Shown one piece after another: positions 1,090-38,136 of a DNA stretch of 64,000 nucleotides (positions are counted from its first letter, which is position 1; the number at the start of each line of letters is the position of its first letter). A model generated the notes under the pieces. The model had not been told where the DNA came from. It searched no databases and was given only the letters and a program-made list of their open reading frames with translations. Made by a program: the position numbers and the translations under genes. The stretch is from Hansfordia pulvinata (taxonomy: Eukaryota; Ascomycota; Sordariomycetes; Xylariales): contig BJKQ01000007.1 in assembly GCA_006538405.1 (NCBI GenBank), forward strand, positions 310,001-374,000, read 5' to 3'.

Positions 1090-3115
1090 TTATCTCAAAA
1101 GGTTGTACTTGGCCTCGGTCGCGCGCACAATTGCCAGCATGGCCTGAATGCTGGACCCGGGTCTCGCCCACCTGACCAGGGCAGACACGGCCAAGTCCTG
1201 GAGAGGGCCTATGTCGCCCAAGGTCTGCGAAAGAGGCTCACATAGGCCGGCTCGGGTAATGAGCAGCACCGAGGCCATGATCGAGTGGAGGAAGATCTCG
1301 AGTGACGCGGACGGCGTTCGTAGGCGTTCCTCGGCAGCCAGGATGTATTGCTTGCAGCGATGGAGACACGTCTGGGCTTTGTCCAGGACCTCAGGCGAGA
1401 CTGGGGAGTTGGTGGTGGAGGATAGAGTCAGGGTGTGGAGCAGGAAAGGACGGAATATGATGTCGCCAGCCGCGTGGTGGCGCATGGCGAAGGCGAGCTG
1501 CTCTGGAGACGGATGGAGCCCAGCCGGGACAGACGGCGGCCTGAGGGAGTCGGGCCACAGCCCGTACCAGGCGTCCAGCTGGCTCACGAGCTCCTCGAAG
1601 GCGCGGATCCAGGGCTCTTCGGAGCCCGGGAGCGCGGCGTCGATCGGCGTCCGCCAGTAGATCTTGTCGTAGAGGGTGTTGTGGACACGGTTGAGCAGCC
1701 TCCGCGAGGAAAGGTTGGCCAGCCACGACAGCAGGTAAGGCTCGGGCGGCTGGCCGCAGTCGGGAAACGGCGTGCTCTCGACGACTTGCTCAATGCCACT
1801 CCTGGGGAGATGGCGCTCGGCCAGGATGTCGCATTCGAGCATGAAGATGGCCCAGCACAAATGGATGGGCTGCGTCGGCTCGTCGTTGCCCCACGGTATC
1901 AAGAGCTGGATGCTGGTCGATGCCATGTGCACCAGTTTCCACGCCTGCAGCGGCCTGCCGAGGTAGCCGAAGTACAGCGAGGTGAGATGCAGGGCTTGCG
2001 GCAAGACGGGCTCTCCCTCGTGGAACCTGGGCCACTCCTTCACCAGAGCACGTAACGCGGTCGTGAAGAGGGCCATGCCCGGAGGCGACTCGGATAGTAT
2101 CGCGCTGGGCGTCGCCTGGGCGATCTGACCCAGAGCCATCACGACCAAGACGAGACACGCCGGGGCGGTGTTGGGTCCCGCGGCCCCCTGCTCCAGCACT
2201 CGGCTGCGTAGGTCGTACACCTCTTGCCGTCGCAGTAGCGGGTGTAGTGGTGCTACCAGGCGGAAGAAGTCCTCGATGAGCAGCTCGGCCGCCTGGCCTT
2301 GGATTGGATCCGTGCTCAGGGATGGCGACGTCGGAGAAGGGGCGCGAGGCGACAGAGACAGCTCGTCTGGTATGGCCGCCTCTGCTCGGTACACGTCAGC
2401 ACGTGACGGGGATAGGCGCCGAGAAGGGCCTCGAGACACTCCGAGTTGAGAAGATCCCCTGACGTGGTGGAATGGGCCAGAGGAATGGTCATGGCGTCGC
2501 TGTTGCGCCGCATCCCACCTGTGGCTCCGCGACTGCCAGTGGCGGCGGCCAGCGCCGGGCTCGTCGCCGTGTCGGGCATGACTGAGCCTGAGGCAGGCGA
2601 CAGGCCGTGGTCATACTGCATGGAGCTCATCCCCGCCCCTTTGGTGCGTTTAAAGAGCCGCTGCGGTGGCCTGCCATGCTGGCGAGGGTGTTTTCAATGC
2701 CGGAGATCCTCTCAAGGAGCGCGGCGACTTGATCTTAAGGCAGTGTCACGTCTCTGTGCTCCCGGTTCCCGTCAGTGCCAGCTCAAGTCCGCGGTGATGG
2801 ATCGAGGAGAGGGGGAGGGAGGAGAGAGATGAGTCATCTTGGAGGAAGCCTTACTTTGTGATGGGCTCTTGGTACTCGCAGAAATCGCGGCTGGCTTCGA
2901 CGCACAGCGCGCACATCGGCTGTCCGCCGTCGCATTTCCGCTTCCTAACAGAAGAGGGAGATGGACGGGCCAACTGGTCAGCACTGCAACTGGAACGTGT
3001 AGCTCGGCCACACGGGACGAGGACGACGACGTGTGTCCACGGGACAGGCGGCGAGGGCGACGTACCGACGGCGGCAGTAGCTGCAAGCGATGGGGATCCT
3101 CCTCTTGGGCGGCGG
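1090..3115 (-). CDS. Zn2Cys6 transcription factor with fungal-specific TF domain (frame breaks, start unresolved)
   Basis: A nuclear regulator of the Gal4 type. The zinc cluster is split by a 121-bp intron (2945-3065). The upstream exon ends IACSYCRRR and the next begins KRKCDGGQPMCALC, giving the CX2CX6C spacing plus the last cysteines (ALCVEASRDFCEY). A leucine-rich segment (VAALLERISGIENTL, about 2660-2731) is a typical dimerisation coil. The long body (1090-2439) holds the fungal_trans region (ELLIEDFFRLVAPLHPLL, then ALHLTSLYFGYLGRPLQAWKL). The pieces lie in three successive frames, with shifts near 2640 and in 2340-2440. Each equals one missing base, and the splice phase into the coil exon also does not close. 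No ATG precedes the zinc cluster in frame, because a TGA lies about 50 bp upstream, so the first exon is unresolved. The target genes cannot be read from the sequence. Confidence 0.7.
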
Positions 3116-5063
3116 GCTGCCGGGATCCGTCCCGTCGCTGTCTCAGCTCAGTGGTGGCGCATGGCCACATGGGCCGGTGGAGCTGCCGGGGCTGCAGAGT
3201 TGGTGTTGGCGAATACAGCGTCCCGGCTGTCTGGCGCATGGATGTGAAGAGAGGGTGAAGTTCGGAGGAAGGACCGTGGTTCCCTTCTCAGCCTTGCGTT
3301 GCAAGGCCGGGCACCCATGGCACCCAGAGAGAGCCTCCTACACACCTCATACCTACTAGTGTCCAAACGGAATCTTTGTTTGGTGCCCCCTGGGCCCTAC
3401 GGACGTACCCTGCGTGGCTTCGCTGAAGCCCTCCACTGTTTCCGCCACGGATGCGCCCGGGACGCTATCCGGACAGGTACCTCAGGTACCTAGCTGTGCC
3501 TGGTAGCACCTAAGCCTTGGGTACGGCGCCAACTCCGTTTCCAGCGTGGCCGAACGCGCCGTACCGTGATCCGAATGAAGCCATGCGGTCCGTATTGCCC
3601 ACGTCCCGTCCCTCTCAGAGATGACAACAAAGCCGGTGGAAGAGACTTAATGGATGTCCGAACGACTGAGCACCAGACGAAACTTCATTGAGAGATACCT
3701 TGACTTTAAAAAGTACAATACCCGTCTTTCGGCGAGCAAGCATCTGGCGGTATGTACTTGCGGCTCCTCGTGCGCCACCGAGGCCAACTTCAACTCCCAG
3801 CTACCTACCCTGTCCCGCCGCTGCCGGCTTCGACGGAAGTGGCTCAGATCGGAGCGAGGCGGTGGCGAGTGTTGCATGGTACGAGCAAATCGGAAAGTAT
3901 TACCTACTTCCGAGAGGTGTCCCAATGCAGGCAGTAGGTGTGCCCACCGGTAGGTCAACAACCCCCGTAGTGCTCGCGGCTCACCGTCGCCTTGCGAGGC
4001 TGATGCGAATCGCCCGGGGAGCAAGGGAACCAATCGGCAAGACCTGGACCGAAGCAAAGCAGCGCCAGATTTTAAACAGAAAGACTCCGCACCTTATATG
4101 TGTGAATGATACAGTACTATAAAGGGTGGGATGTGCTCATATAGCGGTGCAAGCTAGAAGCAAGCATGCACGTACCGGATTCCATCCAGTGGAAAGACGT
4201 CTTGCTCTGTCGAGGGCATGCCATGCTGCATAAGCTCATGAATGAACTTGATGTGTAATTTTTTTCATTCAGAAAAGGAGTGTGGATTTTCCAGGCACCC
4301 GTCTTCATGGGCCGCCTTGGCCAAGTGTATTTAGGCAACTGCTGTCTGCTCACGCTAACAGCTCTAAGAATACCGCTGTCGAATCCCGTGTCTTCTCCGC
4401 TACCCACAACTTCGAAGGCATCTTTTAGCGAATCACTCCGTTTTGTACGAGGCTCGCGATTCATTCTTCAGCAGTTGTCCCAGTGGGGGCGTCGAGTAGT
4501 CACAAATCAGCAAATGCAAATGCGATCGATGTTCCTTAGGGCCGAGACTGTCTAACTGTTACCCCCTGGATTCCCTAGCGGCGTGTTTCCGCTCCCGGGT
4601 TGTGGAACGACTGTGCCCATCGCCACGAAGCGACGCTCATAGCCCTCAAGACACGGCGGAGCCGAGCTCTGCTCTCGGGGAATTATCTCCCTGGTTCCGG
4701 AGCCCGGCAGACTGGTTCCAGTCAGGCAGTTAAGTGATGTGCGTTACGGGGGCAAGGTAAGCGGAGCCCCAGCTGCTGGGACGGATCAAAGTCGCCAAGG
4801 AGACCGTGGTCCGCGACCATCCACCCATCGAAAGTTACCCGCCACTATGGACGAGAACGGGATTAAGCCCGGCCAACACCAGAAGGCACATACCATGTGG
4901 GAAAACTGTTCGAGTCGCACCGACACTTCATCTAGAGTGCGCCCGCGTATAAGTACGCCCAGCCAGCCAATCCTCCATGTTCCAGATCCCAACTCGGCAA
5001 CATCAAACAACAGGCTTTGGAAACAGAAGCTTCAGATCACTATACACCGAGCTATAAATCACC
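3116..5063. other. Intergenic region
   Basis: No coding region that I can support. It contains a cluster of GGTACCT/AGGTACC-like motifs at 3476-3510 and, near its right end, a TATA-like TATAAG at 4948-4953 that suits the small secreted protein starting at 5064. Confidence 0.4.
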
Positions 5064-5661
5064 ATGATGAACCCCCTCCACCTCCTCCTTTTACTCGGCC
5101 CTTTGACGGCTCTAGCATTGCAAGTGTCCATCCCCCCCCCCCCCCCCCCAAGAGACCTCGAGTGCATTGTCTTCTAACAGCGAAAGCAGTCCTGCTAGCC
5201 CCGATGGCGGTCAACAACTGGAAGCACGGAAAAGGCACAAAAACACTCCTGCAGACAACGACTGGCACATGACGCCAGAACAAATAGCGGAAGTCATGGC
5301 GATGAGGCCAACGGCAGAAGGGTATGCCACAACCAGGCTGGTCATGTGCAGTGACAAAGCGTGCCGTGACGCAGCATGGCAGGTGCCCTTGAACCACGTG
5401 GAGTTCCCTTTCGGTCCTACCTGCCATCCTATGCCCCCGGAAGCAGGCGAGATTGGGTCTGCCTACTTCGACCGTATGTATGAAGGCAACGCCTACTGCT
5501 CGGCCGTCTTCTACAGCGCGAGGAATTGCAATCCGAACTACAATGAAGGGCAGGCCACCATCAACGGCGAGGGAAGTACAGGCGATTGCAGCGGGCAATT
5601 CCCCAGGGCTCCGTTGACGTACTCGCTCGAGTGCCGCACTGCGTACAGCGAGCGTTGGTGA
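5064..5661 (+). CDS. Small secreted cysteine-containing protein, frame interrupted at a C18 run
   Basis: The ATG at 5064 (or 5067) opens a classical signal peptide (MMNPLHLLLLLGPLTALALQ) followed by VSI and a proline run coded by 18 consecutive C (5132-5149). In the signal-peptide frame the reading stops soon after the run. One frame over, it continues without a break as QETSSALSSNSESSPASPDG and on to a TGA at 5659-5661. The body has seven cysteines, so extracellular disulfides are plausible. I do not recognise the family; effector-like secreted proteins of this size are common in fungi. A run of 17 or 20 C would fuse the two parts. A TATA-like element sits 115 bp upstream. Either the homopolymer length is wrong in the assembly or the gene is off in this strain. 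Confidence 0.6.
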
Positions 5662-6242
5662 TAGACCAGCGGCCGAGGGGAATCCCACTCCGTTCTGCTA
5701 GCTTCGCTGGAGAAGCGAGCCTGGAGCCTTGCTGTCGATCCAGCCGGCACGGCAGCTTTGCATCCCGCTGCCGAATACGGGCCTGGCTTCCACGGCACGC
5801 CCTGTCGACCCTGCCCATGAGGGCTCTCCAGGTGCAAGGCGGGGGCTTTTCAAGAAAACGCAGAGCAGGGAAGACCCTGATCGACTATTTTCGTGACGAG
5901 GTCGTGGGCAGTACGTCACTAGAACGCGGGACCACAACAGGTCTACCTGCCACGGGAAGAAAAAAAAGACGAAAGCTCGGGTTGCGCAGAATGATTAATT
6001 AGATTGGTAGGTATTAGATAGGTAGACTATAAAAGTACGGTTTCAACGTCTTGCCCAGCTATCCTCGTACCTCTAATGGTTCGAAGTCTCTCTGCTGTCC
6101 GCCAACGCATCAAACCTGTCTTCAAGGGCCTGTGACAATCAGCATCGCGGAGTGATATCTACTCACGGCAGCACATGTTGGTAAGGCCCCATGCTCTATC
6201 TCGCCGTCCGTTAGAAGGTTGGCCTAAACGTATCGAGTCCCG
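5662..6242. other. Intergenic region, 3' side of two convergent genes
   Basis: About 580 bp between the stop of the small secreted protein and the stop of the converging hydrolase gene. I see no coding signal. Only A-rich tracts (about 5957-5972 and 5996-6030) stand out, which may serve 3'-end formation. Confidence 0.4.
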
Positions 6243-9227
6243 CTACGTCGATTGCTTCTTCTTGTCCACATCTATCAGCGTGGCGCTCATGACCATATCC
6301 CTGAGGCGGCCTCTGACAATGACGTAAGGCTCGCCGGACTTGCTGCCGAATTTGACGAGCCCCAAGTGGTCCGCGCCCACGGCGAGGTTGTCCTCGTCCG
6401 CCATGGCGCTGACGCCGCTGCCCGTGGCGGACGTCTTGGTTACCATGATCCGCTTCTCGCCCGTCTTGAAGAGTTCGCCGTCCTTCTGCCGCTAGAGCCT
6501 CGTGGTCAGGTAAAAGGGCTCAAGTGGGCGTTCGCCGATGAGAGGCTCAGGCCCATGACAGGCTAGGTCGCGATGATGGATTCACTCACCAGCGTGCTCT
6601 CGGTCGCGTGTAGCTCATAGAACGAAACCAGCGAGACTGCGTTCTGGAAGCACTGCGCGAAATCTCTCGTAAGCCTGCTCAGATAGTGGTGCGGCTCCTC
6701 CTCGCTGTTGACCACCACGGTGTCGATCAAGGTCTTGTTCGGCTGTCCCATGTCGATGTCGTGCAGCAACGACTTGTGCCGGAGGCCGTGGCTCGGTACG
6801 CCGAAGAAGAGAAGGCCGTGGAGGGCGGTGCTGAAGAAGCGGCGAGTGGGATCGTACTTGTCGCGACGGCGGTAGCTGTGCAGCAGAGCCTTGCCCCTTG
6901 TCTCAGCACAAGGCTTGCTTGCATGTACAATGCTGACTCACCTCTTTGATCACCAAGCCCCCGAGGCTGTGGCCGATCATCACAATGGACCGCAACTCGG
7001 TCTGTGTGCGCGTTAGCCGTGCCCGCCGCGTTGAATTTCATGACCGCCACTCACGTCCGTGTCCCTCCGGAACGTCGTCACGTTCTCAAACAACATCTGC
7101 CCCAGCTCTTCAATTGACGCCTTCGACGTGCTCTTGCCCGTGCCCAGCCATGCCGTCCCGTGGCCGTAGATAATCACGCGGGCGGACGGGATGTCCATCG
7201 GCAGCCAGTCCCGGAGCCAGACGTCGCTGCTGCCCTTGGCCTTCCATGAGCCGATCGCAGGGCTGGCCAGTCCCGTCACGGCGATGATGCTGTGCGACTA
7301 GTCAGCCAGATGAAAAATAGTACGGGATTGAAAGCTAAGGAGTGGGGGGCACCTCACTCGCACGTTGCATTCTCCCTGGGCTCGTTCAGCGGCGTGACTC
7401 CGTAGAAGTCCGTGTCGTACGTGTAGGGGCTTTTGGCGTTCTTGGTCAGCGTTCGCATCAAGTCGAGAAACACATCGTTGGGGAGTCCCGTCGTCACAAG
7501 GGCGGTGGCGCGGGCCTCGAACCCCATCGACGCCAGCGTCTTGACCACTATGGTGAACGTTGTGTCGTTCACCGCGGGGTCCCCCCTCTTGAGGGCTTCC
7601 AGGTTCTCCTCCAGCTCCTCCGTGCTCTCGTGGAGCGGCACGAGGCTTATTCGCAGGGCAAACTCGCGCGGGGGGGCGGGGGCGGCGACGGCAGACAAGT
7701 CTCCGTCAGCATGGCTTGGGGCTTTGTCGACTGGGGTTGGGTGCTCTCGACCAGAAGCTGAGTCTGGGCTGGCACTCGCCCGGAAACCAGTCGCCCCGAA
7801 ATCGGTATCCTGGACCGTGGTGCATCATGTCTGGGTCTCGTGGGAATGCTGCGTGACACGGCGCTCTCGGCTCGATCTAGGGCCACGCCAGCCGGGCTTT
7901 CCCCATCCGAGTCACCCTCTGGGTCAAAGAGATCGACAGGACGGGAAGAGGGTGACTTGCTGCCATTATCAGGCAGGTCTGTAGACGAGGTAGCGGGAAG
8001 TCGCCGCAGAGGCTCCTCGTCATCAAACACTTCCTCAAATTGATGCGGCCGAGGGCTAGCCGGTGGTATTGACCACTCCTGCTAGAGCACGTGTTGTTAG
8101 GCATATCAAGTGTCATGTGTAGGAGTGGCAGGCGAGTCTTACCCATGGCTTCATACGCTTGCCAATTTCCCTCCTCGCTTGAACCAGCCTCTCCTCGTCT
8201 TCAACCCTCCACCGCATCGAGATGATATCGGACGCCGTGGACACCCACTCCCGGATGCTGGTGGCAACCACCCGGTAGCCTGACGCGTTGGCGCTCGCAA
8301 ACCTGGTTATGTTCGAGTAGGTTGCCTCGATTGGAAGGTACATGATGCCGGGCAATTGAGGCCCGGTCAGGTCCTCGTCGACGACCAGCTTCTCCATGCC
8401 TCCCCTCATTCCGGTCTTTTGGTTCTCAAATGCTACCAAAATCTTGAAGCGCTGATACACCTTTAAGAAAAGCAGGTTGACGCTCTTGAACGTCTCGTCA
8501 TCGTTCTTCGGCGCTTTCAGCGCGGACCTCTCGCCGACGGAGGCCCCGGGTACGACGGCGTCCGACATGGCTTGTAGAGTAGCAGCCCAGGACTTGGTGC
8601 TTACATAATCCTGGGGTGTGCTCAGGAACGCAAGGCCGATGGTTGAAAGATAGAGTGAGCGATACTGGTCGTGCTGTGAGACCTTCATTTCGTTTGAGTA
8701 CAGCAGTGCACGCTTCACGAGGATGCCGCCCAGACCATGGCAGACCCAGATGATCGGTCGGCGGGTGGACCCCTCGTTCAGGCGGTAATGGGTGACGGAG
8801 TTGACGAGTTGTTGGGCATGACGGTATATGAAGGCATCACCCGACCCGTGGATGGTCGAGTAGGGGTCCGCGTTGTAGCCATAGACGAGTATGTTGGCAT
8901 GCTCGTCGTTCAGAGAGCCTGGGAGCAAATCAGCCGGCCAGAAGACCTTGTTGCTAGCCGTCCACGTGTTCTTTGGATCACCGTTGAGACTATGAACGAG
9001 GATGACGTCGGCCCTGGCGGAGGGATGAGTGTACACTGGGGTTATCTCGTAGCGAGAGATGTCCCGGTTGATGGAGACCTGGAGCCAACCAGAGGAGGCC
9101 TGGGTGTCAGCGAGCTCGAACCTGACTACCAGTCGTTTTCATCATCGCCATAACTGAAAGGGGAATAACTATGCGGTGGCTTAGAGTAGAGGCCAGTAGC
9201 CTGCCTCGCGATGTATAATATCTGCAT
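6243..9227 (-). CDS. Tandem (double) SERAC1/SesB-like alpha/beta hydrolase
   Basis: Two alpha/beta-hydrolase modules lie in one transcription unit. Module 1 (about 8140-9050) starts RADVILVHSLNGDPKNTW and has the elbow VCHGLGGILVKRAL, where the usual nucleophilic Ser of HSLGG is Gly. Module 2 (about 6250-7310) starts DIIAVTGLASPAIGSW and has an intact elbow MIGHSLGGLVIKE, then LFFGVPSHGL. The modules are joined by a clean intron (8082-8142; GTAAGA donor, CTAAC branch, CTCTAG acceptor) and an acidic Ser/Pro linker. Later introns carry GTGAGG or GTGAGT donors near 7360, 7055, 6940 and 6590. The ATG at 9227 gives the N-terminus MQILYIARQATG. Two one-base frame losses remain, near 9130 and in 7815-7870 (the latter could be a short intron). 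Such folds are lipase/esterase-like and are known as effector domains in fungal NLR systems. No NACHT or amyloid motif is visible here, so the role is open. Confidence 0.7.
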
Positions 9228-27185: not shown

Positions 27186-30131
27186 CGAGTAGCTATCGTC
27201 TACACGCAATCTTTGTCTAGTCGGAGGTGTGAGGGTTCAGAGAAGCCGGCATGTCACGGAGTGTACGTGAAGATGTTGCTTTTGTAGATGGCCAGAACCT
27301 GGTCATTGGGGACGAAACGCGCTGGAGGACCAGTGGTTTGCAAGGGCCATCATCACGTCGGACGTTTGTCTTACCGTTTACCTACATGGATATTAGAGCG
27401 CTGAGGACCAACAGTCTGCCCAAGGCTCCGAAAGACAGATTCGGGTGCCTGGGCATAACAGTTTGTCCAACTCGTTGTTGGTTGGTCGGAACGACGTCAG
27501 GTAAGCCAGCATACTGCCCGCGAGACTTCTGGAAAGCCACTCAGAGGGTATATAAAGCTGTCTACCGCACCTCGCTATCACATACGACCATAGGATCAGG
27601 AAAATTCGGGATCCCGTCCGCTCTCCCATAGACAAGCCTGTTACCGTTGGATTAGTAGTTGGGTCGGTGACGACCAGCGAATCCCCAATGTTGTATGTTT
27701 TTTTTTGATTTTGTTGCTGCTATTTAGTTCTTCTCATCCTGGCCCGGATGAACATGGTACCAGTTCTGCAATCAAGTCGACATGGACAGCCTGACTGGAC
27801 GGGCACCCAATCAGTGGTGACCACTATAGTCACCGTCGGGCGTCACGCCGCGGAACACGTCTTTCTGCATGTGGACTCGGCGTCACAAACATTCACCCCT
27901 GACTTAGCGAGGCTGGATTTGGAGTACCTGGGCCACGCCGGACGGCGCACAGCCGCTTGTGCCGTTACTGATTGTACGGGTTTACGGCATGGCGGCAGTG
28001 TTTGAGACGCTTTGGTAGCCACGGCGCGACCTGGCTCTTTGGTGCTGCCTCTCGACGAGATCCGAGCCGTATATGCTTCCGCGAAACAACCACCGTAGAC
28101 AGCCTAGGCCTCGCAGATAGTGTGGGTGGACAGGCAGTGCAAGTCGGCACCGGTCCGACAACAAGGTGCTCAGGGTGGTCTGCAAATGTCAAGGGATCAG
28201 GCTGACCAAGCCCCGAGAGACTGCCTCGCTATTAAGAGGTACGGCCAGTGACATGGTTCGATATGCTCCCGCACTCCGAAAGCCTCGATTACTGCCCGAG
28301 CTGATCCGCGATACAGCCTTACCACCCACACCTGTTACAGTGCGGGGTGTTGACACGCCGAGGTTCCCTGGTGCCCTTCTCCTCCTATCAGATGGCAAGA
28401 AAGCGATGGGGACGACCCTTCTGGCGGCAGCCGGACGCCGGTATTTGATCTTCTCCAACTCTACCTGGAGGTGGCTGTGCCGCCCCTTCTGGAACAAGAT
28501 GTGTCCAGCGGCAATATGATCATCGGATTTGCTGCGCCGCATAGGAAGATGCGTCTACAGAATGCATGTCAGCTGGTGAGCTACAGCCAGAGCAAATCAG
28601 AGTCTGGCCAGCTGAAGGTCCGGCAGACACCAAGACACATCGCAGCCCCCTCCTTGGGAAAGGTATCCGACCCAAGGGTCAAAAACTCGCCTCATGGGGC
28701 GCGGGGTACCGCAGTCCCGCCCGCCGAAGCCTCGCAGCCTTGCTGTGTGCACAGGCAAAGAAGAGGGCGAGTCTGCATGCCCGTGCTGGGAGCGAGCCTT
28801 CTTCCAAGTCTATCATCTGCAAGTACACACGCTTCGTGCTGTGCAAGTGATCAGTCTGTCTCATGCAAGTGTAAAGCGAAGCATCTCGGGATATACTCAT
28901 GAGAGACGCGAAGCTGGCGACGGCAGCGCTCTACGATCGGCGATAGGAGTCGTTCTCTTAGCTCTCAGCCCCAAGGTGGCCTGCCTTGTATAAGCCATAT
29001 CCCCGATGCAGCCTCAACAGGTCAGCTGTAAGTATGGAGCCGACAAGGCTCCAGCTACGATCTTTGGGGAGACAAGATCCTCTTTCTTTGTCGACAGCAG
29101 CTTCAGGTGACCCCGGCCCAAGGACAGCTTGAGCTCCCATCACTCACGTGGGCGAAGGAGGCGCCTTCGACGCCGGACATGTCCAGGGCACGGGACCTGC
29201 TGAACCGCGCCCAAGGCGCGGTAGCTGGCGAAGGAAACTCGGTGGACACGAACACATCCAAGACGCCTGTAGGGTCATTTGCCGACAGTCTCTTAAGGCC
29301 TAAGAAGATGGCCGGGGCTGGGAGAAGAAGGAGGTATGGCGGCGGGTGAGAGGTACGGGCAGTCTCCCTTGGAGGGGTGGCTTTTTCAGTCTGGGTCGTG
29401 GGGCGGGGAGAAGGGCGACCGTAGGTAGAGAGGACTGTGGCGGGGGCCATCTGGGTGGCCGTCACGGAGACGGTGAGGGAGACCGTGAAGGAAACTGTGG
29501 AGAATACTGTTTGAGGGACGGCCAGGAGAGTGGCCGAAATAGATTAGGCGAGAGTGCTGCCGAGCCGATGCAGAGGGGGAGCAGAGCCGCAGTCAGCGAC
29601 CCCGCTTTCCGGCAGGTTACGGGGATGATTGATCGATTGAGATATTATGGAAAAGATGTTTTTTTGAGTTCTGAGTTGACTCGGTCATGTCATAGAGCTT
29701 CTTGAATCCGTATCATTCATTGGGACTACCTTAATTTTCTCACGATGTATGGGCGTTATTAAGATACATTCTTAAGGTACCGAACATGTGCGAAAGGTTG
29801 TCCATTAGGTTCCTGACTAACCTTTACTTGTTCCACAGCGCTGGATTTAAGCCCTTCAGCATCGGCATGGAAGGTTGTGCAACAATAGCTTCACGTCGGG
29901 GCCTGTAACTGACACGAATTCGGAAAAGTCCATCATGCTTCTTCCTGTGAGAGCAGGTCCTTCGGCTGTCGAAATCAACACCACATCCGGCTCATTTCTT
30001 ATCCGGCCTAATGAGAATCAGCATGGTCATGTATGTGGAAAATGCCAACGATCTAGACAGGGCGCATGGCTTACGGTGGGCCGTGGTAGTTGTAGGTGCT
30101 CTACAATGCCGTCAGTCAGTCACTCTCTCCT
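27186..30131. other. Long gene-poor region
   Basis: Nearly 3 kb without a gene I can support. A T9 tract lies at 27699-27707. At 29103-29600 on the minus strand a Ser/Thr/Pro-rich reading (LTVSVTATQMAPATV onward) next to an out-of-frame hydrophobic stretch could be a relic or small secreted protein gene, but no start, family or intact frame can be shown. Confidence 0.35.
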
Positions 30132-31110
30132 CTAAGTGAGTGCCTTGGAACGTACCGTGGTCCCGACAAGATGGACAGCATCGCCCTGTGTTCCCACTGC
30201 GTGACCCATAACTATGCCCGAGTTGTTGTCTATCTGGCCGTTGAAGTTGACATCCCGAGTCTCATTGAGCTTGGTACCTCTGTGGACTTGGGCGGCTTGT
30301 CGAGGTCCTTGATCCACCGGTTCAAAGCCTGCGAAACTATCTTGAATGCTGTGTCGGGCTCGTCTTGGAACTTGGCCATTTTCACGTGGTTCTCCGCAAT
30401 CGACTTCGGTTGCGTCCCTGGCAGTGAAGCCGATTCCCTTGGCACAATGAGCCCGAAGTCCTCGCCTGATTTCCGGTAGTTGCGCTCCTCATAGAAGCAG
30501 CCTGTCTGGATTGATCTCAGCTCGCTGGATCGGGCCCTGTCGCGGATGAGATCTTTAAAGGCCTTCTCTACGCCGCTCAGCTTGGCCGATCGCTCCTCGA
30601 GGTTCTCAACATTGTCTTTTTGCGAGGATTCTCCCAGCATTTCCAGCAGCTTCAACGCCCTTGAGGCCCATTCTGTTTTGGCCGATCCTTCGAATGGGGT
30701 TCCCATGAAGATCAAGCCCGTCGTTCGAGCGACGAGATCTTCCAAGGCCGAACCGGATCCCCTGGGCGCTGACAGGGCGTTGGCGCAGATGAGACCACCG
30801 AGGCTGTGCGCGACGAAAATGACCGGGCGGTCCGGCTGGGGCGGAGCGTGCGCGTCAGCCCGCCGTCTCTGTCTTTCTCGACGTGAAGCAATGGCATAGG
30901 GCGCGAGAAGCCTACCGTGTTTGTGGATCTCTGGAAATCCAGTAGCTGCTGCAACAGCGACGTCGAGTGGCTGTCCATTGTCAAGCTCCCCGCCTCATTC
31001 TCAGGTCCGATGGCGTTATCGGCCAGGTATTGCGATGAGACGTGGTGGGTGGCTGGGGAGGCTTGGCCTACTTGACTTTGGCATCGTCTGGGTCTGCCAG
31101 GGGCTCGCAT
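30132..31110 (-). CDS. SesB-like alpha/beta hydrolase with C-terminal amyloid-like motif (N-terminus unresolved)
   Basis: SERAC1/SesB-type alpha/beta hydrolase, a class used as an effector in fungal NLR systems. The first resolved exon ends LLQQLLDFQRSTNT at 30916. An 80-bp intron (30836-30915, GTAGGC donor) leads to RPVIFVAHSLGGLICANAL, with the Ser nucleophile intact. Then come GLIFMGTPFEGS, GCFYEERNY, ESASLPGTQ and the His region AENHVKMAKF, ending ALNRWIKDLDK. After this the frame changes, either by one missing base or by a roughly 50-bp intron (GAG/GTACCA to GGCCAG/ATA). The new frame reads NNSGIVMGHAVGTQGDAVHL and stops at 30132, or splices on at a GTACGT donor. The expected N-terminal VHGL..W strand is not found in 31.1-31.8 kb, so an exon is missing or lost. 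It is divergent from the NLR at 32270. Confidence 0.65.
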
Positions 31111-32269
31111 AGTCGTGTATTTTCAGCCATGACGAGAATCAGGTCAGAAGATGGATGGCCAAGAGTCACGTATGTCTGGTTCAAGGCGAAAGGCAACGGG
31201 CCGGAGACCTACTTGTATTGCCTGGGGAGTCGATCGATGGGCCGCATTTTCTGTCGCTTGGCAGCGCGCCTTGTCGCGTCCTCACTGGGAAGCACCCGTG
31301 CATGCTGCAGCCTTGACCGGTGCAGATCACAAGGCAAGACAAAGATTCTTGCAGCACGACTGAAGGGTTGCCAGTGGCCTGCAAGGTGGAAAGATGAGGC
31401 AAAGCTCTCCTGCTAATGAAAGGGGATGCGATCCCGCGCCGTCACCCTCGGCCGACTTGACCATCTTCCATGCGTCGAAGCCCGGCAGGCTGCCGCTGTT
31501 TCGCCATCTCCACCAAGCAGCCTTTGATGCCTCGGAGCAAATGACGAGTATGCGACGTATTATGTGCGCTTGCCGTTGGTGTACAGGCATCCTCTATGTT
31601 GAAATCAAGGAGACTGTGGGTGGGCAGGCTCGACCCGTATCATTATTAGCTGTTTTAGGTAGTTCTCCGGTGTCAACCGACGAGGAGGAAACCTACCCGA
31701 ATTTGATACAACCACATTCTCCACCATCTTTTGCCCTCGTGGCGAGCCCGTTCCCAACTGCCTCCCATGTCTATATAAGTGAGACTCTCCGCCCTCTCCT
31801 CGATCCACAGAACTCAAGATAATCAAGCCTTCTGTTCCATCCCTTTTGACACTCTACTCGTACAGAACCGATGGTATGGCTGGCTAAGCTGTGGCACGCG
31901 TGGGTAAAGGAGGCTCAGATGCCAGCCCGAACGACCATCCCGAGGCATGCACGTCCGCCCCTTCAGCTGACGCGACATGCTTCGACGGCCTGTTGATAGG
32001 CTCCCCAAGACGAGCCACAGGTGATCAGTGCCATTTCGCATCTAGTCTGACAAGCCACACGCAGCAGCGGCTGGCCTGCACCGACGAAGATTCGGGGAGA
32101 TGACGCCGCCCTCGTCGCCAATCAAACCGCGCCGTGTCGCACTCCACCAGACAAGGCTGAGAGAGCACGGCATGCCCCCGCACTCGTGTCAATACTCAAC
32201 ATTCTCTGCTCTCCTCTCTTTTCTCCTCAACCTCATCGGCAGCTTGCTGACTCCGCTTTGCCCAATACC
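31111..32269. promoter_or_regulatory. Intergenic region between the hydrolase and the NLR (head to head)
   Basis: About 1.16 kb between divergent genes. A clear TATA-like TATATAAG lies at 31772-31779 on the plus strand, some 490 bp before the NLR ATG, so the NLR may have a long leader or a leader intron. The undetected 5' exon of the hydrolase may also lie here. Confidence 0.45.
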
Positions 32270-35200
32270 ATGGACACGGAAGGCGAACCTAGCGCAAAGC
32301 GCCGACAAACCAGCCCTCCTGCGACTGCAAACAGTGGCTTCATTGGACACGATACTTCTGCCACGGGGGGCATCGTCGCCGGCACAAGACACGGCGGTCA
32401 CCCAGAGGTAGGAGAAGATGGCACTGTTCATGACAGGTCAGCAGCCGGACAACTGGGAGTCAACATCGGCGCTGTCTCAGGCAACAGTGGCGTCGTGATC
32501 GGCGCCGTGAATGGCGGCAACATCATTGGTAATTCCACTCTCGAATCATCTTCTATCGATCTGGTTTTCTGACAGGTATACAGGTAATCAGAACAACTAC
32601 TACAACCATTATGATGACACTCGGGAAACCCAACGCACGAAGAATGAATGGCTCCGGAGGCTGTACACATGTCCATATGAGGATCGCAAGAACCTGAACC
32701 CAGGAAGAGTCGCGGGAACATGCCAGTGGTTCGAGAACCACGCGCGCTTCTTGCATTGGAGAAACGACGAGTCTCGCTTTCTCTGGGCGACTGCCGACCC
32801 TGGGTGTGGTAAATCTGTCCTCGCGAGATATCTGATCGACGAAGTCCTCAAGGCGAGCAAAGACACCTTGACGGTCTATTTCTTCTTCAAAGACGGCTAC
32901 AAAGACCAGGTCTCTGCGGTGGGGGCAATTCGCTGCATCCTTCACCAAATATTCGAACATATCCCCCAGTCTTTCACACCAGCCATTCTCGAGCGGCTGG
33001 AGCAGAGGGGACCGACGGTGCTGGAAAGTTGTGACAGCCTCTGGCAGATCTTACTGGAGACCGCCGCTGGCATCACTGACAAGAAGATCATCTGCGTCTT
33101 GGACGCCCTCGACGAATGCGAAGAATCTGGCCGAACGGAGCTTATCGAGGCAATTGACAGGACTTACCGTGCCGGCTCATCCCGCCCGCCGCGTGGGATG
33201 CTCTTGACGAGTCGGCCCTACTACTCCGTCGAGCGGGACTTCACGACGCTGGACTTGGGACCCGGCAGTTTGATCCGACTGAGTGGCGAGGGCGAGGCAG
33301 AAGTTGCCCAGATCGCGCGCGAGATCGACTTGGTGATTAAGCATCGAGTGGGGCAGCTGGCCAAGAAACAGCGGCTGTCCGAGAACGAGAGGTCAGCGCT
33401 GTACGGGGAGCTGACTCGCTTTCCGAACCGGACCTATCTCTGGGTTCATCTCATGTTCAACGCGTTCCAGAAGAATCTTTTCATGCCTCTCCCAAGCGCC
33501 ATACAGAAAACGGCCCAGCACCTGCCCGGAACAGTCGAAGAGGCGTACGAAAGCATCCTGTCCAGAAGTCCGGACCCCACTCTTGCCAGGCGGGTCCTAC
33601 ATATCGTGGTACAAGCCTTGAAGCCGCTCACCGTGGAGTTCGTGATGGGCGCATTGGCTGTGTATGAGAGTTCCGATGTCGGACCGATCGAAGACCTGCA
33701 ACCGGGGTTGGACGAGAACTTGGAGTGGCGAATCCGAGATCTGTGCGGCCTTGTCATCTCGGTTGTGGGATCCAAGATTTATCTCATGCACCAGACAGTT
33801 CGCGAATTTCTAGTGCCAGATGCTGCGAGCGAGCGACGAGCCCCAGAGTGTGAGGGGTGGAGCTGGAAGCACTCCCTCATTCCCGGCCAGTCGCATCGCA
33901 TCCTCGCCGAGATATGTGTGGGCATTATTACCCGGCTATACGGTCGTGAGCCTTTGCTCGACCATGATCGCTGGGGTGCTGCGTGGCCACCCAGGCCACT
34001 CAGCCTTCGCAGCTATGCTTTCTCGTATTTCATCGAGCATATCCGCAACGCCGAGGCGAGGAACTACGAGTCGGCGCTGACACTGGTCGGAAGGCTGTTG
34101 GACGTCGAGATGCAGCTGCGCTACTATTACATTTGGAGAAACTGCGCCATTGGGATCGGACCCTTCTACTCTGTGCTTTACCTGGCGATGGCCAACAATC
34201 TCCCCAACCTCGTGGACGCCCTCTTTCCGGACTCGATGCAAGCGCCAGCGACCCAAAGCAACTTCTTGAACCGATTGGAGACGAAGGCGCGGCAGAACGG
34301 GGCGACACAGGATTTGTCCGATGCTTTGCACTGCAGGAACGATGACGGAGACACACTTCTACATGCTGCTGCTATGGGCGGTTATGCCATGGTTGTGCAG
34401 GCATGTCTGGAGGCGGGGGCGGCCGTCGACGCGAGAAACAACTTCGGGGAGACTGCTTTATTGTGTGCTGCGGGGGCGGCCGTCAGCGCGAGAAACAAGT
34501 TCGGGGAGACTGCTTTATTGTGTGCTGCGAGGAAGGCGCACGAAGAAGTCATGGACATGCTGCTGCAGGCAGGCGCCGATGCCGATGCTAAAGACACATG
34601 GAAACGAAACACAGCTCTGCACTACGCCATCAAGGCTGGTGCCGTGACCTGCGTCGAACGATTGCTTCGGGCGGGTGCCGATGTGAACAACAAAAATTCA
34701 GTCGGAGAGACCGTCATGCATGAGATGGCCCGATGCGGGTTCACGCGGGACACCCCGTCGGACCGCCATCTACTGCCGGATAGATACCGGCTGAAGGATA
34801 GCTTCTCGTATCTGGCGTTGCTACTCGAGCACGGGGCCGATATTACTGCGGTGGATCAATATGAGGACACGCCTCTGCACTACGCGTGCCGGGCGGGCAA
34901 CGCGGATCTTGTCCGCATGCTTCTTGAGAACGGAGCCGACATCACAGCGCAGAACAGAAAAGAAGAAACGCCCCTGCACACGGCCTGTTGTGCCAAAACG
35001 GCGGATTGCGCCCGAGTGTTGCTCGATAACGGTGCCGACATCACCGCCCGGGACAAGTATGGAGACACGCCCTTACACACAGCGACCACTTTCGGGCAGA
35101 ATGATAATGTCTGCCTTTTACTCGATAGCGGAGCCGACGTTGCAGCTCGGGACGTGAAGGGAGACACGCCCTTGCACATGGCGAGTCTTATCGGGCGGGA

Positions 35201-35441
35201 GGACCATGTCTACCTTTTGCTCGACAACGGAGCCGACATCACAGCCCGTAATGATGATGGACAAACTCCGCTACACTGCGCTCGTGATTATTTTACAAAT
35301 GCGCGCATGTTTCTGCACAGCCGAGTCGACGTCACAGACAGGGAAGAGCTTAGTCAAGCCGCGCTGAGAATAGGAAATGATGAGGGACAGTCTGAAATGG
35401 TTGAGTGGTTGGTTTCCCGCATAACCACCGGGAAGCACTGA
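32270..35441 (+). CDS. NACHT-ankyrin NLR receptor with N-terminal amyloid-like motif
   Basis: Intracellular STAND receptor of 1038 residues. The ATG at 32270 has a good context (ACCATGG). Exon 1 (32270-32528) codes a Gly/Asn-rich N-terminus with the half-repeats VNIGAVSGNSGVVIGAVNG. A 55-bp intron (32529-32583) follows; exon 2 begins GNQNNYYNHYDD. The NACHT domain has Walker A DPGCGKSVLARYL (about residue 160), Walker B IICVLDALDEC (about 255), MLLTSRPYYSVERD, and a winged-helix region TYLWVHLMFNAF. From about residue 665 there are eight to ten ankyrin repeats (for example EDTPLHYACRAGNADLVRML) to the stop. No catalytic domain is fused, so output presumably goes through a partner. A 57-bp internal duplication disturbs the repeat phase at 34414-34527. 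The open frame is undamaged. Confidence 0.9.
32426..32528 (+). other. RHIM-like/PP-type amyloid motif region of the NLR
   Basis: This segment codes GQLGVNIGAVSGNSGVVIG followed by AVNGGNIIG. The core N-S-G-V-V-I-G matches N-S-G-I-V-M-G in the neighbouring hydrolase. The layout, short, Gly/Asn-rich and directly before NACHT, is that of known fungal amyloid signalling motifs. Val sits where those usually have Gln. Confidence 0.55.
34414..34527 (+). repeat. 57-bp tandem duplication inside the ankyrin region
   Basis: A segment starting CGGGGGCGGCCGTC is repeated after 57 bp with only a few differences (GAC versus AGC, AAC versus AAG). It adds 19 residues (GAAVSARNKFGETALLCAA), about half an ankyrin repeat, so the 33-residue period is broken here. 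Confidence 0.85.
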
Positions 35442-36243
35442 GTCCCTGAGGCCTTGAACCTACCCGCGTCGGCCCTGGGATCATTCACTCGATTGCGATG
35501 TTCAGTCCAGGGTAAACAGGGCAGAGTCAAGAACATTCGGCCGAGGCAGGTGCCGAGCACCGCGCAGGGGTTTCCTGCGAGTACTCGTACGCTTCCATGG
35601 GCCGTTGCAGCCCTACAGGGAAACGTGCGAAGCGGCTGAGTTCCAACAATAGCACATCGCGGTTGTGCTTACCACGTTTTACCAGCCCACGCGTACTCGC
35701 GGCTCCGCCAGGCGCAGAACCGAACTGACTTTGGCCGTGTCTCCCCTGTCCCTCTCCCATTTTTCTGGGGCGGGACCCCTGCGCGCAGGTACTCAGGATC
35801 CACGGCAGCGCGTCCATGCTTTCTCGAGCTGAACGCGCGGGTGTCAGAGCTAGACGGCATGCAGAGCGAGGAACCCTGCCTCTCCCATGCGCGCAGGATT
35901 CGAGCAATCTCGAATACGTAAGCATCTATAGCGCACAGGGCATTCAGCCGGCAGGGGTGAGGGGGTGGAAACAGTTTCAGCAAGCATAGGCGGGGCGCCC
36001 CTGATCATGGTTCATGGCTGGATTACGTATGCACGAGCGTGCGTTCATGATCAATGGGATGAGTATTATGGTGGGTTTCCGAGGATATAAGGACTCGCCG
36101 CCGATCCCTCCTGTCCCCATCATCTATTCACGCCACTCACTCCCGACACACAGACCTTTCTAAACAACCAACTACTCTCTTTCTACTCGCTAAATTCGCC
36201 TCGGCACTAATACCAACAACGACCATTGTAATTGTCTATAATC

Positions 36244-36274
<31 letters not shown>

Positions 36275-36280
36275 GCCAAG
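35442..36280. promoter_or_regulatory. Upstream region of the first tandem secreted-protein gene
   Basis: No coding region seen in about 840 bp. A TATA-like ATATAAGG lies at 36085-36092, 196 bp before the ATG, followed by GACTCGCCGCC, part of a promoter segment shared by the three tandem paralogues. The leader ends in a (CA)n run at 36244-36272. Confidence 0.5.
36244..36272. repeat. (CA)n microsatellite in the 5' leader
   Basis: About 14 CA repeats end eight bases before the ATG at 36281. Confidence 0.85.
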
Positions 36281-36780
36281 ATGCAGTTCCCGTCCACCAC
36301 CAGCCTCCTCCTGGCCACCCTGACCCTTGGCCTCGGCGCGCAGGCCGCGCCCTCGCCGGCCGGCACCAAGACGACCACCCCCACCAATACCCGCGCGGCT
36401 CGGCCCCGCTGGCGCAGCGCTCGCAGGTGCCCATCGGCCCCTCGAAGCCGGGCGCCAGCGGCACCGAGGTGAGCTACGCGTTCCGGGCGTTCGCGGGAAC
36501 GGCGTGCCAGGGGGCCGCGGCGGCCAGCACCGAGGTGGCCAAGGAGAACATCGGGACGGGAGGGCTGAGCGAGATCAAGGGGTGCTGGAACTACCAGAAC
36601 GTGGGGTCGATCGGGCAGTACCCGCGCGAGGGCGGCGAGACGGACGGGTGCGACCTGTGGAACTTCTCCGAGCCCAACTGCAACGGCGCCGGCTACGCCA
36701 TGCAGAGCGTCAAGTACACCAGCTCCAACGGGCAGTGCAACGACGTCACCTTTGCCTCGCTCGCGTGGGTCTGCCAGTGA
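36281..36780 (+). CDS. Small secreted protein, tandem paralogue A (frame break)
   Basis: The signal peptide MQFPSTTSLLLATLTLGLGA ending QAA is followed by a Thr/Pro stretch. The body lies one frame over: VSYAFRAFAGTACQ, then GCWNYQNVGSIGQYP, CDLWNFSEPNCNG and the end FASLAWVCQ. No intron fits between the two, because the stretch lacks a usable GT donor. The frame is lost at the CGCGCG run at about 36389-36398, as if one base were missing. The body has six cysteines and the pattern of paralogues B and C. An extracellular, effector-like or surface role is inference; I do not recognise the family. Confidence 0.65.
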
Positions 36781-37548
36781 GCTGAAGCTGGAGCTGGAGA
36801 GGGAGGAGGAGGAGGAGGAGGGCGGGGGTCACGAGCTTGTCGTCGACTCTTTGAGACGCATTTGTCGTCGGGGAGGGGTTTTTTATTCTTTGATCTTATA
36901 GTGATATACTTGCAAATAACATTCATCTCTACCTAAGTGCAAGTGCCGGACCTGGACGGCAGTTCGTGTCGATCCCCTTTTAACGTATGTGCGTAAAATG
37001 GGGTATTCTTGTGCAAGAAGCGTCTGTGGTAAGTGGTGGTACACGTACCTAAGGTAAGCAACGATCCCCACGACTGCCAGAATTGTCCACATTTCCGTAA
37101 TGGGCAATGGCCGCACCGTCTTCAGTAGGCGGACGAGTGTCATGAGGCTCTCAATTGGGCAAGACGAGGGGTCGATTTGGGACAGCCTCGCCGGCGGGAG
37201 GAAGCAGGACGCTTCTGATTAGTGTTAAACGGCGCAGACAGGAGGAAGCGCCCTGACAAACGCGAGAGGGCCGACGTGCCAAATACCAGCCGATTGATAT
37301 AGCTGCATTCCAAATCGACGAGCATGTGTCGGGCATGCGTTCGCGGTTCTCGCATGTGTTCATAGGCTGACGCGGGTTATAAAGCTCGACTCGGGACTCG
37401 CCACTAGTCTTATCCTCTTTACACTCACTCACTCACTCACTCACTCACTCACACTCTCTCTCGCTTTTCCTCTTTTATTAGCTTTACGTTAATATCCATA
37501 GCAGTAAAGCCACCGACAGCTTTTCATAAATACAATAATCCGCTCACA
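36781..37548. promoter_or_regulatory. Spacer and promoter between paralogues A and B
   Basis: The spacer is duplicated. Its 3' flank (36884-37030) and promoter part (37100-37410) both recur after paralogue B, about 1.36 and 1.58 kb on. It includes TATAAAG at 37378-37384, the shared GACTCGCCACTAGTCT and an (ACTC)n run at 37423-37452. Confidence 0.6.
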
Positions 37549-37672
37549 ATGCACTTCCCCACCACCACCACCACCACCACTACCAGCAGCGCCGCCGCCG
37601 CAGCCGCCGCCCTCCTCGTCACCACCCTCGCCATCGGCGCGCAGGCCGCGCCCCCCGCCACCCGCGGAACCG

Positions 37673-37707
<35 letters not shown>

Positions 37708-38136
37708 GCGGGCCTGGCCCACCGCCAGGACGACATCCCGGCGAACTGGCCGTCGCCGACGGTCGCGTCGTACACCTACATCCCCGCGGCCAAGCCGGAC
37801 GTGTCCGGTCCGGAGTCGGGCTACCCGTTCCGGGCCTTCGCGGGGCTCCTGCTCCGGCGACCCGCAGTCGGGGACCCCGCCGCGCAGCCCGCCCAGGCCA
37901 CCGTGGCCGGCTCCGGTGGCGGCGGCGGCGGCTCGATCCGGGCGTGCTGGAACCACTCCGACGTCGGCTCCACGGGCCTTTACCCCCCGACCGATAACCT
38001 CCAGGGCTGCAAGGTGTGGTGGTTCCCCGCGGCGGACTGTGGCGGGGACGGCCGCCGTGCCGGGGCTGTCGAGGTCGGGACGACTATGGGGATGTGCCTG
38101 GCCAGCCAGTTCACCTCCATCGGGTGGGTTTGCTGA
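37549..38136 (+). CDS. Small secreted protein, tandem paralogue B (195 aa, internally re-framed)
   Basis: An intact 195-codon frame: a signal peptide with a Thr/Ala-rich start and ALLVTTLAIGAQAA, then the conserved KPDVSGPESGYPFRAFAG, IRACWNHSDVGSTGLYPP, GCKVWWFPAADCGG and SQFTSIGWVC end. Between 37840 and 37878 the frame differs from paralogue C. C reads ASCSGDPQPGSP, while B reads LLLRRPAVGDP in another frame. Two compensating indels thus changed about 12 residues and removed one conserved Cys, without breaking the gene. A promoter like those of A and C lies upstream (TATAAAG at 37378). Confidence 0.75.

What the first reader, a model, noticed from the sequence alone, without database searches (positions are those of the whole stretch)
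30132..35441. Head-to-head SesB-like hydrolase and NLR share an unusual RHIM-like motif with Val in place of Gln
Seen: the hydrolase C-terminus reads NNSGIVMGHAVGTQG, and the NLR N-terminus reads GNSGVVIGAVNGG just before NACHT. The core N-S-G-[IV]-V-[MI]-G is common to both, and the genes diverge from a 1.16-kb spacer. Known: fungal NLRs can activate a neighbouring effector (SesB, HeLo or lipase type) by templating a short amyloid motif present in both, and PP-type motifs usually have N-S-G-x-Q-x-G. Inference: this is a receptor/effector pair with a variant motif in which both partners changed Q to V, keeping pair specificity.
Basis: partly seen in the sequence, partly recalled or inferred. 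Interest (0 to 1): 0.9.

Follow-up and report, generated by a model that had tools for sequence, protein, structure and literature searches.

The report
Paired fungal immune receptor and hydrolase
Two neighbouring fungal genes, an immune receptor and an enzyme, share a short sticky motif like those that fungi and animals use to trigger cell death, in a version where a usually conserved glutamine is an oily residue; the enzyme gene in this copy looks damaged.

Summary
The hydrolase tail (NNSGIVMGHAVG) and NLR N-terminus (GNSGVVIGAVNG) share a motif; a loose form of it occurs in the window's open frames only in these two genes. It is not a private change of this pair: 14 of 68 hydrolase hits carry the same tail, and at the position that is Gln in the PP/RHIM core they have V 8, I 4, L 1, Q 1. 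The same genome holds two more head-to-head hydrolase/NLR pairs (C11, C15) with matching motif ends and the NLR intron at the same place. Best reading: a family of NLR/effector pairs signalling through an aliphatic-centred PP/RHIM-like motif, a new variant of a known kind. Against it: the window's own match is weak (shuffle p 0.0355; profile E 1.1), and the window NLR scores higher with the C11 and C15 tails than with its own. The window hydrolase lacks about 55-65 core residues and changes reading frame before the motif, so this copy is probably a relic or enzyme-dead, unless the assembly is wrong. Amyloid formation is inferred, not shown.

The parts
32270..32528 (+). NLR exon 1 with the motif region; imperfect tandem GVNIGAVSG / GVVIGAVNG (32456-32482 and 32489-32515, 18 of 27 bases equal)
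32529..32583 (+). NLR phase-1 intron (GT..AG, 55 nt) directly after the motif
   Evidence: same place in the C11 and C15 NLRs, read by eye
32584..35441 (+). NLR exon 2: NQNNYY run, NPHP3_N/NACHT-type NTPase, ankyrin repeats
31071..31130 (-). hydrolase N-terminal stretch MAENTRLCEPLADPDDAKVK, followed by a stop in this frame
   Evidence: resembles the N-terminus of relatives
30994..31070 (-). place where relatives have about 55-65 more residues (VDIVFVHGLGG...ARILSFGYN...); only 77 bases remain here
30916..30993 (-). hydrolase stretch AGSLTMDSHSTSLLQQLLDFQRSTNT
30836..30915 (-). probable hydrolase intron (GT..AG, 80 nt)
   Evidence: the C15 paralogue also breaks frame here
30278..30835 (-). hydrolase domain exon with the AHSLGG nucleophile elbow
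30234..30277 (-). 44-nt GT..AG stretch between domain and tail: possible intron, but its tail-frame reading RDVNFNGQ matches coding GDVNF.. of relatives
30156..30263 (-). hydrolase tail with the motif IDNNSGIVMGHAVGTQGDAVHLVGTT, in another frame than the domain
30101..30155 (-). probable last hydrolase intron (GT..AG, 55 nt)
30071..30100 (-). probable last hydrolase exon STYNYHGPP*
   Evidence: compare NTYHG of relatives
31131..32269 (.). spacer between the two putative start codons

Best explanation
The locus belongs to an ascomycete family of head-to-head NLR/hydrolase pairs. NLR N-terminus and hydrolase C-terminus carry related copies of a two-block motif, about N-x-G-[VI]-[VIL]-x-G followed by [IV]-x-G-[ST]-x-T-N, which matches in register the G-hydrophobic-Q-hydrophobic-G core of fungal PP and animal RHIM motifs but usually has an aliphatic residue in place of Gln. 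Most likely mechanism (inferred): ligand-driven oligomerisation of the NLR stacks its motifs into a cross-beta seed, which templates the disordered tail of the hydrolase and so clusters and activates or recruits the enzyme in an immune or cell-death response. Shown here: motif, head-to-head pairing, conservation of the tail, shared intron position, low-confidence (disordered) tail in the model of a relative. Inferred: amyloid, templating, activation, cell death, insulation between pairs. In the window copy the hydrolase is damaged and probably not a working enzyme, though its motif and the splice signals after it remain.
For: 14 of 68 hydrolase hits carry the tail. One of them, P0036, has Gln in the same place (NFGVQVGN), which puts the motif in register with PP. 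Three hydrolases with this tail were found in the own genome (C15 and C7 weak, E 0.05 and 0.18), and 3 of 3 stand head to head with an NLR whose first exon carries a related motif and whose next exon starts with an NNYY-type run after a phase-1 intron. Shuffle p 0.003 (C11), 0 of 2,000 (C15), 0.002 (Dendryphion); the true assignment of four NLRs to four tails scores best of 24. A profile of tails alone finds NLR P0099 (27.1 bits) and the C11 NLR (20.7 bits). 0 of 118 background NLR N-termini reach the true partner's score for any of the four tails. Dendryphion nanum P0007 and P0156 are listed with the same longest-contig length, 1,860,979. Tail of P0001 modelled with pLDDT under 50 from residue 289.
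Against: Window pair alone: p 0.0355; profile E 1.1, and the C15 NLR 2.5 bits, neither above shuffles; P0156 at 13.6 bits is only a little above the best shuffle, 11.8. The window NLR scores higher with the C11, C15 and Dendryphion tails (47, 48, 42) than with its own (39). Own-genome searches with NLR-side motifs found no second NLR. No NLR/effector gap-free alignment: hydrolases have 4-5 more residues between the blocks. 54 of 68 hydrolase hits show no such tail. Vertebrate RIPK3 core variants tested in PMC12119088 all keep Gln (passages), so tolerance of V is not shown there. No fibril data.
Confidence: 0.6

Rival explanations
1. The window pair itself is intact and working: the 44-nt stretch is a real intron, the shortened hydrolase is expressed and serves as effector, or as an enzyme-dead carrier of the motif comparable to the cytotoxic-dead HET-s variant.
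For: GT and AG ends keep the frame between STE and IDNN; the downstream intron and last exon look normal; the remaining domain is open over 186 residues with the nucleophile elbow; HET-s precedent (PMC12881547, passages).
Against: The 44 nt encode, in the tail frame, RDVNFNGQ, like coding sequence of relatives; 44 nt is very short for a fungal intron (recalled); the missing stretch holds the first strands of the sheet in the model of P0001.
Confidence: 0.2
2. The damage is an assembly error and the hydrolase is whole in the organism.
For: The C11 hydrolase also changes frame within a short stretch and the C15 NLR has an in-frame TAG, so errors or decay occur in several loci.
Against: A missing stretch of about 55-65 codons is more than a base-calling error; the 2.9-kb NLR exon next to it is open. 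Read depth could not be seen.
Confidence: 0.15
3. The shared motif is a non-amyloid docking strand, or a relic of a split of a fused gene, and does not template anything.
For: Only short blocks are shared, spacing differs between NLR and hydrolase side; no fibril data; fused SesB-type/NLR genes occur in this genome (L040 hydrolase frame followed by an NLR frame).
Against: Place at the NLR N-terminus and effector C-terminus, Gly-hydrophobic-x-hydrophobic-Gly core, low-confidence tail, a Gln-bearing member with most of the PP signature.
Confidence: 0.17
4. Chance likeness of two Gly/Asn-rich linkers.
For: For the window pair alone p is 0.0355 and the profile match is not significant.
Against: Conserved tail in 14 relatives, three of three head-to-head pairs, 0 of 118 other NLR N-termini with the pattern.
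Confidence: 0.07

Closest known systems
PP motif systems: Chaetomium globosum CgHELLP/CgSBP/CgPNT1 and Podospora anserina HELLP/PNT1 (PMC7885112, PMC5485727, passages)
   Same: NLR with N-terminal motif next to an effector with C-terminal motif; one effector (SBP) is a putative lipase; core Gly-hydrophobic-x-hydrophobic-Gly
   Different: Central Gln replaced by V, I, L or F in 13 of 14 relatives and all 3 hydrolases of this genome; second Asn of the signature absent; NACHT with ankyrin or WD-type repeats instead of NB-ARC/TPR
Animal RHIM and insect cryptic RHIM (PMC9531809, PMC12119088, passages)
   Same: Hydrophobic-x-hydrophobic-Gly core; Aedes cRHIM proteins of which only PGRP-LC has the Gln still gave ThT signal
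   Different: No Gln; partners are fungal NLR and hydrolase; relation to RHIM is by pattern only
Sigma system of Nectria haematococca with SesB lipase (PMC5485727, passages)
   Same: SesB-type hydrolase as motif-bearing effector of an NLR
   Different: Sigma is a motif of about 40 residues with other repeats; no sigma Pfam family was listed for the window proteins
HET-S/NWD2
   Same: Two-gene, head-to-head layout; a HeLo plus HET-s_218-289 locus stands in this genome beside an NLR 51% identical to the window NLR over 114 residues
   Different: Other effector and other motif

Membership tests
PP amyloid signalling motif | signature NxGxQxGxN with central Gln (PMC9815663, passage) | tested here: not met
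   Window NSGIVMGHA and NSGVVIGAV keep N, G, G (3 of 5 fixed letters); relative P0036 NFGVQVGNV keeps 4 of 5
PP amyloid signalling motif | motif at NLR N-terminus and at C-terminus of a neighbouring effector | tested here: met
   C7, C11, C15; for C7 the tail is in another frame than the domain
PP amyloid signalling motif | forms amyloid/prion and activates the effector | not testable with these tools
   no wet test; disordered tail only as model confidence
RHIM | [IV]-Q-[IV]-G tetrad | tested here: not met
   IVMG and VVIG in the window
SesB-type alpha/beta hydrolase | alpha/beta-hydrolase fold with nucleophile elbow | tested here: inconclusive
   AHSLGG present; relatives' model matches alpha/beta hydrolases in the PDB, with low TM-scores 0.28-0.44; the window copy lacks the first strands; Pfam matches of the window ORF are all below the curated cut-offs
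Fungal NLR | NACHT-type NTPase plus repeats | tested here: met
   NPHP3_N 130.5 bits and ankyrin repeats above cut-off; PF05729 NACHT itself below its cut-off
HET-s motif (HRAM) | HET-s_218-289 match | tested here: not met
   none listed for the window proteins at E up to 1
Sigma motif | match to the sigma Pfam family (PF17106 in the listing for P0050, P0053) | tested here: not met
   none listed for the window proteins at E up to 1

The most novel reading that the evidence does not exclude
An aliphatic-centred relative of PP/RHIM is a widespread amyloid signalling class of its own, tied to SesB-type hydrolases, which runs several parallel NLR/hydrolase channels in one genome that differ from each other, and from Gln-centred PP, by their core residues.
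Probability: 0.38. Interest if true: 0.72.

Novelty: new variant of a known kind. Interest (0 to 1): 0.53.

Why it matters
The central Gln is described as the conserved centre of PP motifs and part of the RHIM core (PMC7885112, passages). A natural family that keeps the hydrophobic positions and glycines but mostly has V, I, L or F at the Gln place, with one Gln-bearing member as bridge, makes it testable what the Gln does: is it needed for fibril formation, or does it set who can seed whom? Three pairs in one genome offer a ready specificity test. Searches centred on the Gln may miss such pairs.

Tried and rejected
A Q-to-V switch private to this pair: rejected, since 13 of 14 relatives have V, I or L. 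Canonical PP: rejected on the Gln. Sigma and HET-s motifs: no such Pfam family listed for the window proteins at E up to 1. The RVQVG of the C1 sister locus looked RHIM-like to me at first; Pfam shows HeLo and HET-s_218-289 on that protein. Own-genome search with the window NLR motif found only itself, with the Peltigera NLR motif nothing: single short queries are weak, so other NLRs with the motif may have been missed. A database search with the Peltigera NLR N-terminus returned itself and P0189, whose N-terminus lacks the GVVxG block. The hydrolase tree did not resolve whether Gln or Val is older; several branches in it are long. A sequence search of the PDB with P0007 gave no strong relative (best E 0.0061). 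Daskalov 2016 (PNAS) on the first PP system is not held, and published motif logos are figures that I could not see, so V variants may have been counted as PP in print, and motif NLR34 of PMC9815663 (unassigned, 29 NLRs) could be related. That I found no naming of an aliphatic-centred form rests on the searches and on the passages and two sections read, not on whole papers.

Full report
What was checked. The window is C7:310001-374000 of a 46.8-Mb unnamed assembly of 63 contigs. The named NLR matches listed are ascomycetes such as Lomentospora and Echria (that they are ascomycetes is recalled). The NLR reads as two exons, 32270-32528 and 32584-35441, with a 55-nt intron, 1,038 aa and no internal stop, with an NPHP3_N NTPase and ankyrin repeats. 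The hydrolase is less clean, as described below.

The motif belongs to a family. A search with the joined hydrolase returned 68 proteins. In 14 of the 68, picked by eye, the protein runs on into a tail with the motif; 7 of these 14 carry a fungal name in the listing. Of the other 54, 10 end exactly in QV after the domain, as expected if those models stop at an intron there (inference; the C15 paralogue has a GT..AG stretch at that place); others have different tails or none. The tail is GDVNY...IxNNxGVVMGHAxxTAxDGVRIxGSxT. At the position that is Gln in PP the 14 have V 8 times, I 4, L 1, Q 1; the three hydrolases of this genome have V, V and F. The one with Gln, P0036 of Conoideocrella luteorostrata, reads NFGVQVGNV and keeps four of the five fixed letters of the published PP signature NxGxQxGxN (PMC9815663, passage); the window peptides keep three. 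This puts the aliphatic version in register with PP. Which state is older is open.

The pairing holds in other loci. Searching the own genome with the C11 tail returned three places: C11 itself, C15 (E 0.05) and the window's C7 (E 0.18); the tool calls its counts lower bounds. All three hydrolases face an NLR head to head, with 1,139 bp (C7), 315 bp (C11) and 944 bp (C15) between putative start codons. The C15 receptor has a NACHT-type domain followed by a WD-type region, the C11 receptor a NACHT-type domain and a downstream frame that looks WD-like by eye (not run through Pfam); the window's has ankyrin repeats. In all three NLRs a phase-1 intron follows the motif and the next exon gives NQNNYY, SVTNNYY or QNQTNNYY (checked by translation only for the window). 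In Dendryphion nanum, hydrolase P0007 and NLR P0156 are listed with the same longest-contig length, 1,860,979; whether they are neighbours is not known. They read IENNRGVVMGHAHSTAADGVRVIGNSTS and ITDNRGVVLHDASGHAHVIGSQTN. An NLR of Peltigera leucophlebia, P0099, has NNSGVVLGNASGQVHLIGSQTNNHY.

How strong is it? Local alignment of tail with N-terminus against 2,000 shuffles: C7 p 0.0355, C11 0.003, C15 0 of 2,000, Dendryphion 0.002; of the 24 ways of assigning four NLRs to four tails the true one scores best. Specificity is suggested, not proven: the window NLR scores 47, 48 and 42 with the C11, C15 and Dendryphion tails and 39 with its own. With the last exon added to the window tail its own score is 45. 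Against 118 other NLR N-termini none scores as high as the true partner for any of the four tails; this background is the 120 listed of 2,737 hits minus P0099 and P0156, which I removed because they carry the motif. In that test the window tail's best partners are the Peltigera NLR (82), then Dendryphion (46), then its own (45). A profile of the 14 tails, searched against 128 real and 2,480 shuffled segments, found P0099 (27.1 bits), the C11 NLR (20.7) and P0156 (13.6, against 11.8 for the best shuffle), but the window NLR only at 6.2 bits, E 1.1, and the C15 NLR at 2.5 bits. So the family is supported, while the window's own NLR is a weak member of it. Its motif region is an imperfect tandem, GVNIGAVSG then GVVIGAVNG, 18 of 27 bases equal; the first copy has Asn at the Gln place.

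State of the window hydrolase. Relatives have about 64 residues between AKV and the LTIDDHS region (P0001); here 77 bases separate the two conserved stretches and about 55-65 residues, with VDIVFVHGLGG and ARILSFGYN, are missing. In a model of P0001 (mean pLDDT 72, 21 sequences) that stretch holds the first strands of the sheet; the model's top PDB matches are mostly alpha/beta-hydrolase enzymes, at low TM-scores. The tail lies in another frame than the domain. A 44-nt GT..AG stretch would join them in frame, but it covers RDVNFNGQ, which relatives have as coding GDVNF... The last intron (30101-30155) and exon (30071-30100) look normal. I take this copy as decayed or enzyme-dead, with assembly error as an open alternative: the C11 hydrolase also changes frame and the C15 NLR has an in-frame TAG at L036:7132-7134.

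Mechanism. Inferred from the PP, HET-S and RHIM systems (PMC7885112, PMC5485727, PMC12881547, passages): receptor oligomerisation brings the N-terminal motifs together, they nucleate a cross-beta stack, and the disordered hydrolase tail is converted and drawn in. The tail of P0001 has pLDDT under 50, which fits but proves nothing. Loss of Gln need not forbid it: in Aedes, of three cRHIM proteins only PGRP-LC has the Gln, yet cells overexpressing any of the three gave strong ThT signal (PMC9531809, passages). Against it, the vertebrate RIPK3 core variants tested in PMC12119088 all keep the Gln (passages). Nothing here shows fibrils.

What is known. The fungal families named in the papers read are HRAM, sigma, PP and PUASM 1-2 (PMC9815663 sections 19 and 24; PMC12261475 passages). 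The present motif does not meet the Gln criterion of PP, and no Pfam motif family of that kind was listed for the window proteins, but it shares the core frame, the position in both partners and a bridging member. I file it as a new variant of the PP/RHIM-like kind, not as PP.

Noticed in passing
L038 (G000:C1:1128500-1138400), NLR frame minus 1986-5354, effector frame plus 6163-6936: The NLR most like the window's in this genome (51% over query residues 82-195) stands head to head with a HeLo plus HET-s_218-289 protein, a HET-S/NWD2-like pair.
   Followed up: partly
L036 (G000:C15), 7132-7134: In-frame TAG between the NACHT-type and WD-type parts of the C15 NLR.
   Followed up: partly
L037 (G000:C11), about 4840-4890: The C11 hydrolase changes reading frame twice within a short stretch: decay or assembly error.
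   Followed up: partly
window 8113-9138 (-): A second, more distant hydrolase-like open frame (341 aa; weak match E 3.6e-4; no Pfam family at E up to 0.1).
   Followed up: partly
L039 (C19) and L040 (C10): SesB-like hydrolase frames followed on the same strand by phosphorylase-like and NLR frames, as in all-in-one receptors (by eye).
   Followed up: no
window frames 36232-36780 and 37408-38136 (+): Two neighbouring frames encode similar small Cys-containing proteins (FRAFAG..., CWN...VGS.G.YP), apparently a tandem duplication (by eye).
   Followed up: no
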